A stretch of 64,000 nt of DNA from Thermothelomyces thermophilus ATCC 42464. Taxonomy: Eukaryota; Ascomycota; Sordariomycetes; Sordariales; Chaetomiaceae. Position 1 is the stretch's first letter. Each line of letters starts with the position of its first letter. Shown here piece by piece: positions 25,801 through 27,173 of this stretch. The notes beneath the pieces were generated by a model. That model was given only the letters and a program-made list of their open reading frames with translations. It did not search any database and was not told the origin of the DNA. A program made the translations under genes and the position numbers. The stretch covers positions 558,001 through 622,000 of the forward strand of contig NC_016476.1 of assembly GCF_000226095.1 (NCBI RefSeq), read 5' to 3'.

Positions 25801-26678
25801 GCAAGCTATTAACAGCATATCACCCGTAGACCGACGGACAAATAGAGTAACTAAACCAAGTTGTTAAGCAATACCTCCGCTCTTACGTCAATTACCAGCA
25901 AGACGACTAGGTCATGCTGTTACCAATAGCACAACTCGCCTATAATACGACGCCGACAGAAACGACCAAAGTCACACCGTTTTTCGCGAACTACGGATAT
26001 AAAGCAGACCTTAGGCAAGGACTAGAGGTCACAGTGCCAAGAGCAGTAGTCAAAGCAGAACAGATGCACGCACTATACGAGAAGCTTAAGAAGGAACTCG
26101 AGTTTGTCAAAACCAGAATAAAGAACTACTACGACAAATACAGGCTCGAGGGACCTCGCCTAGAGAGGGGAGACAAAGTCTACTTAATTATATAGAACTT
26201 ACGAACCAAACGACCAAGCACGAAGCTAGACTTTAAGAAGGTTAGACCCTTCGTTATCAAGGAACGAATTTCGACATCTAACTATTAACTATCGTTACCG
26301 TCATCTATATAACTACGGACAGATGTTTTTCATATTTCACTTCTCGAACTAGCACCAAAGAACGCCAAGGTTACTACACACATCGAAGCAGAGGACGAAG
26401 AGGAAGAATAGGACGTCGAAGAAATTCTAGATTCACGTATTATCAACAGGGAACTGCAGTACCTGGTCAAATGGCTTAATTTTGGACTAGAAGACAACTT
26501 ATAGGAACTAGTTAAGAACTTGAACTGCCCTGAGAAACTAGAACAGTTCCACCAGCAGAACCCGGATCGACCATAGGCACTAGCTCGGACAAAACGGCCA
26601 AGTCAGCCTCTGACAAATCCAGGCCCAAAGAAGACTAGTCAAACAAGACGTCAGCACCCTAGGACCGTACATCACTAA
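22851..26678 (+). pseudogene. pol: E3 pol relic (1275 codons in the -1 frame)
   Basis: Protease VDSRAEINLISPTL near 23061 (DSGAE with Gly now Arg). RT: LFVPKKDGKLQLYINYRQL near 23910 and YYLDDILIFSKT near 24240, both catalytic Asp present. RNase H: EVETDASDYAIGGQLG near 24680. The integrase HHCC region near 25320-25460 ends CNRSKT, with some His/Cys lost. Core motifs are IDFITKLPESKD (25540), ITDKDTKF (25730) and AYHPQTDGQIE (25815). The chromodomain is EILDSRIINRELQYLVKW near 26420-26560. Pol ends at a double TAA (26676-26681). In-frame TAG/TAA mark former Gln/Trp codons. The last ~167 bases overlap the antisense gene. Confidence 0.9.
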
Positions 26679-27173
26679 TAACGCGTGCTTTAGACTCCCG
26701 TACCCTCCGTTCTTCCGCCTCTATTTCCTCTAGAGACTATATACCTCGATAAAACAGCTCGGAACCCTACTCCTTTAAGAAACGTTTCTAGCGACGAAGA
26801 CGAGCTAATCGACCGACAGCCGTCTAAAGTTAAGTCTAAAGGACAAAAAGGGCCTCTTTAGCATCGGCCTCTTCTTATTCTATATACTTTTATTCGGATA
26901 TAATCTTCGTTACTATAAAGAATTAGCCACGAACATTAAAGGCAACAAACTAGGTCACAAACAAGCAGACGCTACATCGGAACTATCGCAAGAACGACCC
27001 CGATATACGCACTCGCTATAGCGAGAAGAGCCTAACGCTATACGACAAGCCAAGTTCCGCTTAAAACACCACAAACACGGCATGACGTCTACGCCAGAAG
27101 AATCAATAAAAGAAGCAAGCGCGGCGTGCTGTTAGGATTTCGAGGATCGGCGCTTAGAAACACGATCTGCTAT
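26512..27173 (-). pseudogene. E3 antisense Zn2Cys6-like / coiled-coil gene, two exons
   Basis: Start codon now ATA. Exon 1 (27173-26963) encodes a basic N-terminus, then cysteines at residues 33, 36, 43, 52 (now Tyr), 55 and 62: C-x2-C-x6-C-x8-C-x2-C-x6-C-D, the spacing of fungal Zn2Cys6 clusters. The intron (26962-26913, 50 nt) has donor GTTTGT, branch GGCTAAT and acceptor TATAG, phase 1. Exon 2 (26912-26512) carries a Leu/Ile heptad segment (residues ~75-125), an RGIQSLEEIEAEERR block and the tail VSQGSSSS before TAA. Spliced length is 203 codons plus stop. It resembles, from memory only, common ascomycete hypothetical proteins with C-x2-C plus CDGS and a coiled coil. Role inferred: nuclear DNA-binding or regulatory protein. 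Confidence 0.78.

What the first reader, a model, noticed from the sequence alone, without database searches (positions are those of the whole stretch)
26512..27173. Antisense gene in a chromovirus encodes a Zn2Cys6-spaced protein with a coiled coil
Seen: between pol and the 3' LTR, on the strand opposite to gag-pol, a gene of ~200 codons recurs in E1, E3, E4, E5, E6 and E7 (a remnant in E2). Its six Cys follow C-x2-C-x6-C-x8-C-x2-C-x6-C, within the published spacing of fungal Zn2Cys6 clusters, and a coiled coil follows as in Gal4-type dimers. Family knowledge: antisense extra ORFs are known in some plant gypsy elements. From memory, many ascomycete hypothetical proteins share this Cys pattern. 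Inference: the element carries its own DNA-binding regulator or silencing antagonist.
Basis: partly seen in the sequence, partly recalled or inferred. Interest (0 to 1): 0.9.

Follow-up and report, generated by a model that had tools for sequence, protein, structure and literature searches.

The report
Spliced antisense gene in fungal retrotransposons
A fungal jumping element carries, on the strand opposite to its own replication genes, a small intron-containing gene for a six-cysteine, helix-rich protein; related genes occur in other ascomycete fungi, so it looks like a real accessory protein that may regulate the element.

Summary
E3 (20172-27726) is a full-length Ty3/gypsy chromovirus.

The main coding evidence does not depend on RIP: in 49 genome copies, 13 indels fall in leader, intron and LTR, none in 612 exon nucleotides. 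An intact 200-aa relative reads across the inferred splice. In 36 aligned relatives five Cys columns are invariant, the sixth at 90% or more.

Antisense genes of this kind are known: brtn in Botrytis Boty-like elements (Zhao 2011; title and citing passages seen only) and plant Grande, RIRE2, Retand. So: new member of a known kind, probably the brtn family. I found no description of the six-Cys motif, the antisense-strand intron or the breadth of the family (nine searches).

Zn2Cys6 membership is weak: spacing met, but 1 of 14 relatives scanned singly passes Pfam's cut-off and the basic Gal4-type loop is missing. A nucleic-acid-binding regulator of the element is my best mechanism; no functional step is tested.

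The parts
20172..27726 (+). E3, full-length Ty3/gypsy chromovirus; 427-bp LTRs at 20172-20598 and 27300-27726, AATAT on both outer sides
   Evidence: LTRs 93.4% identical; flanks
20740..26573 (+). gag-pol with many in-frame stops: Gag (from about 20740), RNase H, integrase zinc and core domains, chromodomain (26412-26573); the reverse transcriptase piece was not searched
   Evidence: Pfam on four pieces with X at stops; rve is below its cut-off
26676..26681 (+). first stop codons of the pol frame shared by 30 of 30 copies
26963..27173 (-). antisense gene, exon 1 (start codon to first base of codon 71; six-Cys region 26988-27077)
   Evidence: tblastn, motif, 30 copies
26913..26962 (-). inferred intron, 50 nt, phase 1
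   Evidence: frame change; P0001 reads across it; length 48-50 in 50 of 50 copies; same codon in E1, E5, E7, read by eye
26512..26912 (-). antisense gene, exon 2 (helix-rich segment, tail, stop); 26512-26678 overlaps pol
27174..27299 (-). leader between the antisense start and the 3' LTR; 9 of 13 indel events lie here
27264..27299 (.). 18-base palindrome core 27265-27282 followed by a purine-rich tract next to the 3' LTR
5825..6487 (-). antisense gene in E1
   Evidence: tblastn P0016, 61% over 1-196; profile
36562..36828 (-). antisense gene in E4, coil part
   Evidence: profile, E 5.5e-7
43821..44386 (-). antisense gene in E5, two frames
50667..50810 (+). antisense gene in E6 (inverted element), coil part, weak
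   Evidence: profile, E 1e-4
58364..59010 (+). antisense gene in E7 (inverted element), two frames with the clearest intron signals

Best explanation
It is a protein-coding accessory gene of a lineage of fungal chromoviruses, of the same kind as Botrytis brtn and probably homologous to it. It is read antisense to gag-pol from a start 127 bp inside the 3' LTR, it is spliced, and it ends inside the 3' end of pol. Shown by sequence: gene, strand, intron signals, frame conservation, six-Cys motif, homologues. Inferred: an antisense transcript starting in or next to the 3' LTR. Inferred: the Cys motif binds zinc and the helical exon dimerises, giving a small nucleic-acid-binding nuclear protein. 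Inferred and least certain: it binds element DNA near its own start (the palindrome beside the purine-rich tract is the obvious candidate) and tunes the element's transcription or silencing, working like HTLV-1 HBZ without being related to it.
For: Indels: 13 events in 377 nt of leader, intron and LTR, 0 in 612 exon nt and 0 in 112 nt of pol, 49 copies. P0001, intact and 200 aa, equals the spliced reading. Five Cys columns and one Arg invariant, the sixth Cys at 90% or more, in 36 relatives with 24% mean column identity. Profile hits in E1 and E3-E7 on the antisense strand, 0 in the reversed window. 31 of 52 relatives can be encoded opposite a chromodomain end at the same place and phase. A palindrome core lies between the antisense start and the LTR in 6 of 6 elements that reach that far. 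Antisense accessory proteins of Grande and HTLV are nuclear (passages of PMC7264820 and PMC11963269).
Against: No transcript, zinc, dimer or binding data. Zn_clus scores are low and the Gal4-type basic loop is absent. A profile-profile match to host Zn_clus covers only half the motif and is reached by some controls. The coil test fails for the Botrytis-like relatives. The palindrome is not proven to be a DNA site: it also folds as a hairpin, not significantly (17 of 200 shuffles fold as well), and it lacks CA and TG steps, so RIP would partly spare it without selection. Every genome copy listed carries in-frame stops.
Confidence: 0.5

Rival explanations
1. The protein acts in the replication or integration cycle (nuclear entry, chromatin tethering, RNA chaperoning) and not in transcription; its coil and basic motif bind Gag, integrase or nucleic acid.
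For: R108, in the basic RLRRQK-like motif inside the helical segment, is invariant in 36 relatives; the Gal4-type basic loop is missing.
Against: Nothing here links the protein to Gag or integrase; the antisense orientation implies expression apart from the genomic RNA.
Confidence: 0.25
2. A canonical Gal4-type Zn2Cys6 transcription factor captured from the host, binding CGG-type sites.
For: Cys spacing in 35 of 36; P0026 over the Pfam cut-off, 22.0 against 21; UniProt names P0006 and P0011 Zn(2)-C6 fungal-type; scores above Cys-fixed shuffles on average, 10.6 against 4.5 bits.
Against: 1 of 14 relatives scanned singly passes the cut-off; only 12 of 35 beat 95 of 100 of their own shuffles; basic loop missing; hhalign matches 16 columns of opposite halves, and column-permuted controls reach higher scores (19.5 against a control maximum of 23.1).
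Confidence: 0.15
3. The antisense RNA itself, not the protein, is the functional product (dsRNA or interference), and the ORF is a passenger.
For: Proposed for plant antisense aORFs (passage of PMC7264820); tail-to-tail overlap with pol.
Against: Indels avoid the exons but not the leader or intron; six Cys conserved in distant relatives.
Confidence: 0.08
4. No gene: a chance antisense frame opened by the composition and by the coding constraint of pol.
For: Antisense frames of coding DNA are often open (general knowledge); every listed copy has stops.
Against: The Cys and coil parts lie outside pol; homologues in other fungi; frame-keeping indels; 0 hits in the reversed window.
Confidence: 0.02

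Closest known systems
brtn, antisense gene of Boty-like Ty3/gypsy elements of Botrytis cinerea and Sclerotinia (Zhao et al. 2011, Virology 417:248; title and citing passages seen; paper not held)
   Same: Antisense gene between pol and 3' LTR of a fungal gag-pol-chromodomain element. Botrytis, Sclerotinia and Monilinia proteins belong to this family, and several can be encoded opposite a chromodomain end (P0050, P0042).
   Different: I saw no mention of a Cys cluster or intron in the passages read. The window's copies are in another lineage and inactivated.
Plant antisense aORF-3R genes (Grande gene23, RIRE2, Retand ORF4/TRP28, PvRetro13 ORF2)
   Same: Position and orientation; nuclear product for Grande (passages of PMC7264820 and PMC11963269).
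   Different: Different named domains (TRP28, SMC); no six-Cys motif mentioned in the passages seen; no direct comparison made.
HTLV-1 HBZ
   Same: Antisense gene at the 3' end of an LTR element, nuclear regulator, antisense promoter in the 3' LTR (passages); spliced, with a bZIP coiled coil (recalled).
   Different: No homology claimed; bZIP, not a six-Cys protein; comparison of working only.
Fungal Zn2Cys6 (Gal4-type, PF00172) proteins
   Same: Cys spacing, and a helical segment after the cluster.
   Different: Low scores; basic residues lie more in the second loop (2.3 K/R) than in the first (1.4), the reverse of 27 host domains (1.3 and 4.4).

Membership tests
Ty3/gypsy chromovirus | LTRs, Gag, RNase H, integrase, chromodomain at the end of pol | tested here: met
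   (reverse transcriptase piece not searched; rve below cut-off)
Antisense accessory gene (aORF-3R, brtn kind) | Gene on the opposite strand between pol and 3' LTR | tested here: met
Antisense accessory gene (aORF-3R, brtn kind) | Antisense transcript | not testable with these tools
   No RNA data held. P0001, of spliced length on a 901-nt contig of source lgn (taken from memory for SRA assemblies), is only suggestive
brtn family | Sequence homology to Botrytis BRTN | tested here: inconclusive
   Botrytis, Sclerotinia and Monilinia members found by profile; the BRTN sequence itself was not available
Zn2Cys6 (PF00172) | Six Cys with C-x2-C-x6-C-x(5-16)-C-x2-C-x(6-9)-C spacing (spacing recalled; the pattern used on host domains) | tested here: met
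   35 of 36 relatives, two loop lengths of 7 where 6 is usual
Zn2Cys6 (PF00172) | Curated Pfam score | tested here: not met
   21 of 36 match at E<=10; 1 of 14 relatives scanned singly is over the cut-off
Zn2Cys6 (PF00172) | Basic residues between Cys 2 and Cys 3 | tested here: not met
   mean 1.4 K/R (37 relatives) against 4.4 (27 host domains)
Zn2Cys6 (PF00172) | Residue similarity beyond the Cys | tested here: inconclusive
   Mean 10.6 bits against 4.5 for shuffles, 12 of 35 individually above 95%; hhalign weak, controls reach it
Zn2Cys6 (PF00172) | Two zinc ions, DNA binding | not testable with these tools
   structure prediction off

The most novel reading that the evidence does not exclude
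A broad ascomycete superfamily of chromovirus regulators, encoded antisense and spliced, with a Zn2Cys6-like cluster whose basic half is reversed relative to Gal4-type domains. It would bind a near-invariant palindrome beside the 3' LTR, giving fungal retrotransposons an HBZ-like control protein evolved independently of retroviruses.
Probability: 0.2. Interest if true: 0.8.

Novelty: new member of a known kind. Interest (0 to 1): 0.5.

Why it matters
Antisense extra genes recur in LTR elements of plants, fungi and in retroviruses, and the review seen says the function of the plant and Boty ones is unknown (passages of PMC7264820). This family supplies a defined domain plan, intact relatives, an intron that marks antisense mRNA and a candidate cis site, so the question becomes testable in fungi. 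The intron is also a natural strand marker: it is present in 50 of 50 copies aligned, so in these copies the antisense mRNA was not the template for new insertions. The copies were picked by similarity, 30 of them to intron-containing DNA, so rare intronless copies could have been missed.

Tried and rejected
Within-family dN/dS: impossible, 318 of 322 variable columns among 30 copies are transitions. RIP context is mixed: C/T columns are followed by G in 65, A in 37, T in 30 and C in 16; A/G columns are preceded by T in 75, C in 66, A in 22 and G in 7, so CpG sites share with CpA. Transversions among 50 copies are too few: 5 columns with at least two copies. Between window elements, transversions at codon positions 3/1/2 are 211/195/124 (exon 1 alone 77/50/29), but pairs are not independent and exon 2 shows little excess at position 3; used only as support.

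A single continuous ORF: rejected, because the Cys frame meets a shared stop just inside the intron and the coil lies in another frame. Frameshift instead of intron: rejected, because the junction carries indels and the exons none, and E1, E5 and E7 have the junction at the same codon with fungal-type signals read by eye.

Circularly permuted Zn_clus: swapped halves score 11.2 bits against 10.4 natural (higher in 25 of 37), inconclusive. Profile-profile match to host Zn_clus: probability 61%, score 19.5 over 16 columns; 100 column-permuted controls average 12.2, maximum 23.1, weak. PDB: best profile hit UPF0335 coil at E 0.019; Cep3 and CBF3 subunit B, zinc-cluster proteins, at E 0.7 and 1. 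NCBIfam: coiled-coil chance matches. Relatives with flanking DNA: viral contigs and genome contigs gave none. The promoter scan is for sigma-70 type and means nothing here.

Rows dropped: alignment A2 leaves out 16 of 52 relatives, fragments or lacking one part; among them P0015 lacks the first Cys (read). L078 dropped. Three of 30 host Zn_clus loci dropped.

Literature: nine completed searches showed no description of a Zn2Cys6-like or spliced antisense gene in a fungal retrotransposon; I saw listings and the passages named. Only CC-licensed PMC papers are covered, and Zhao 2011 is not held.

Full report
WHAT IS THERE. The window lies in a 38.7-Mb genome of 7 contigs; I take it for a Neurospora-like ascomycete with RIP (inferred). 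E3 is a full-length element, 20172-27726: 427-bp LTRs 93.4% identical, AATAT on both outer sides. Pieces searched apart with X at stops give Gag (Retrotrans_gag 3.4e-7), RNase H (3.1e-35), integrase zinc domain (1.1e-9), rve (1.3e-6, below its cut-off) and a chromodomain (3e-9); the reverse transcriptase piece was not searched. It is a chromovirus. The E3-type 3' region has at least 40 copies (40 of 436 candidates scored). P0001 matches at least 159 places (150 of 886 candidates scored), and every one listed has in-frame stops.

THE ANTISENSE GENE. tblastn with the intact relative P0001 places residues 1-70 at 27173-26964 and 71-200 at 26913-26524, minus strand. The two parts are in different frames. 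Across 30 copies the Cys frame meets a shared stop just beyond the Cys part, and the coil frame has its last shared stop before the coil. A 50-nt intron, 26962-26913, with GT and AG ends and a CTRAY branch-like site, joins them in phase through a split Leu codon, and the joined reading corresponds to P0001. In 50 copies the first donor base is G in 29 and A in 21, as RIP would change it. E7 has the clearest form, GTTAGT...ACTAAC...TAG, at the same codon; E1 and E5 have the junction at the same codon with altered donors (read by eye).

IS IT MORE THAN CHANCE? Variation among 30 copies is almost purely transitions (318 of 322 variable columns), so codon statistics inside the family say nothing. 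Indels are not made by RIP. In 49 copies (E3, L002-L030, and 19 of L061-L080; L078 dropped as partial) the alignment of 27500-26400 has 13 indel events: 9 in the 126-nt leader, 3 in the 50-nt intron, 1 in 201 nt of LTR, 0 in 211 nt of exon 1, 0 in 401 nt of exon 2, 0 in 112 nt of pol. Four of the leader events share position 27210 and two share 27227, so independent events may be fewer. In 50 copies, counted by whole codons, exon 1 is 210 nt in 49 (the exception is L078) and exon 2 is 390 nt in 50, while the intron is 48, 49 or 50 nt; that alignment shows 4 gap columns in the intron. L061-L080 were chosen by me for frame lengths unlike E3's. Indels were thus tolerated between ATG and LTR and in the intron, not in the coding frame. 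This is the strongest evidence for a translated, spliced antisense gene. The window-wide profile search gives hits in E1 and E3-E7 and none in the reversed window.

RELATIVES. Three protein searches returned 4, 25 and 43 hits, 52 distinct proteins (in one search only 8000 candidates were scored). Named sources: Parathielavia, Canariomyces, Corynascus, Staphylotrichum, Xylariaceae, Sclerotinia, Botrytis, Monilinia, Rutstroemia; that these span Sordariomycetes and Leotiomycetes is recalled. Many others are unnamed. In the 36 aligned members (16 fragments or partial proteins left out) mean column identity is 24%; columns C33, C36, C43, C55, C62 and R108 are invariant, and C52, D63 and R110 are at 90% or more. 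Members P0012, P0013, P0014, P0024 and P0026 carry extra residues at the intron site, as an unspliced in-frame intron would give; P0001, P0010 and P0011 lack them (read).

SHARED ANTISENSE POSITION. The relatives' DNA could not be fetched. A codon test was used instead: can the protein be encoded so that the opposite strand reads a chromodomain end, F-H-x3-P-x-[KR]-P, the motif opposite E3's tail? 31 of 52 relatives allow it at the same place near the C-terminus and in the same phase; 33 of 52 have any site. Of 520 shuffled proteins 94 have any site in any phase. The 52 are related, so these are not 31 independent events; P0041 (Botrytis) and P0035 (Sclerotinia) have none. Botrytis P0050 and Monilinia P0042 have it. 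So the gene probably sits opposite the end of pol in distant fungi too. In E3 the pol frame has its first stop shared by 30 of 30 copies at 26676, so about 165 nt are shared by the two genes, and conservation of the last ~55 residues may be pol's. The Cys cluster and the coil lie outside the overlap.

ZINC CLUSTER? Pfam Zn_clus is the commonest match in the family, 21 of 36 at E<=10, next best 5, but of 14 relatives scanned singly (11 of the 36, and 3 fragments) only P0026 exceeds the cut-off. Against a profile of 27 host Zn_clus domains (30 loci fetched, 3 without the full pattern), 35 members average 10.6 bits, Cys-fixed shuffles 4.5 (sd 4.2), and the host domains scored on their own profile 47.7; 12 of 35 members beat at least 95 of 100 of their own shuffles. 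Profile-profile comparison is weak. K/R count in the first loop is 1.4 against 4.4 in the host, in the second loop 2.3 against 1.3. So: Zn2Cys6-spaced and somewhat Zn2Cys6-like, not a typical Gal4-type DNA reader.

COIL. The segment after the cluster is 18% Glu, 14% Arg, 12% Leu, about 12% Ala and 1% Pro. A simple heptad score is matched by 5 or fewer of 100 shuffles in 15 of 36 members: 8 of the Sordariomycete-like ones and 7 of an unnamed group; none of the Botrytis-like members. A long helix is likely; a dimeric coiled coil is plausible and unproven.

CIS ELEMENT. Between the antisense start and the 3' LTR, the six elements that reach that far share the 18-base core GCTTTCGGGTCGAAAGCC (one mismatch in E5 and E6), followed by a purine-rich tract. 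The core occurs 431 times in the genome at <=1 mismatch; its backward control occurs 0 times. It has no CA or TG step, so RIP partly spares it, but it is also shared by the divergent E4/E6 type. As a DNA hairpin the region is not significant (z -1.47, 17 of 200 shuffles fold as well). It could be a binding site of a dimeric protein, an antisense-transcript signal, or an RNA structure used in replication. These tools do not decide.

KNOWN OR NEW. The antisense gene brtn of Botrytis Boty-like elements was published in 2011 (title in the reference lists of PMC8365987, PMC4227169 and PMC7264820; passages only; paper not held). A Monilinia transcript similar to both truncated Pol and BRTN is reported in PMC5987419 (passage). 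Plant aORF-3Rs are discussed in PMC7264820 and PMC11963269 (passages). The 2011 survey of fungal LTR elements (PMC3248453) does not contain the word antisense in its main text (find). Hence: new member of a known kind, very probably the brtn family. In nine searches I saw no description of the six-Cys motif, the antisense intron with frame-keeping indels, or the family's breadth.

MECHANISM. Shown: gene, strand, splice structure by sequence, frame conservation, six Cys, homologues, position. Inferred: antisense transcription from the 3' LTR side, zinc binding, dimerisation, nuclear nucleic-acid binding, regulation of the element. I put about 0.95 on a real spliced protein gene of the element, and 0.5 on the full regulatory reading.

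Noticed in passing
27265-27282 and equivalents 6580-6597, 37192-37209, 44523-44540, 50285-50302, 58259-58276: An 18-base palindrome core next to the purine-rich tract is shared by six elements of divergent subfamilies and occurs 431 times genome-wide at <=1 mismatch, backward control 0. Its role is unknown.
   Followed up: partly
36500-37180 (E4) and 50300-51000 (E6): A divergent subfamily of the antisense gene; by eye its first Cys loop looks longer than in the other elements.
   Followed up: partly
L001-L030 and L061-L080 (genome copies): Variation among 30 copies is 318 of 322 columns transitions, at CpG as well as CpA/TpG contexts, which suggests deamination of methylated CpG besides RIP.
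   Followed up: no
44557-44977 and 44976-45175: Behind the 3' LTR of E5 a second LTR end piece follows directly, a tandem LTR fragment.
   Followed up: no
window 1-64000: Most of the window is a cluster of related chromovirus copies in both orientations; only two ORFs of 120 aa or more remain, both starting with TTG.
   Followed up: no
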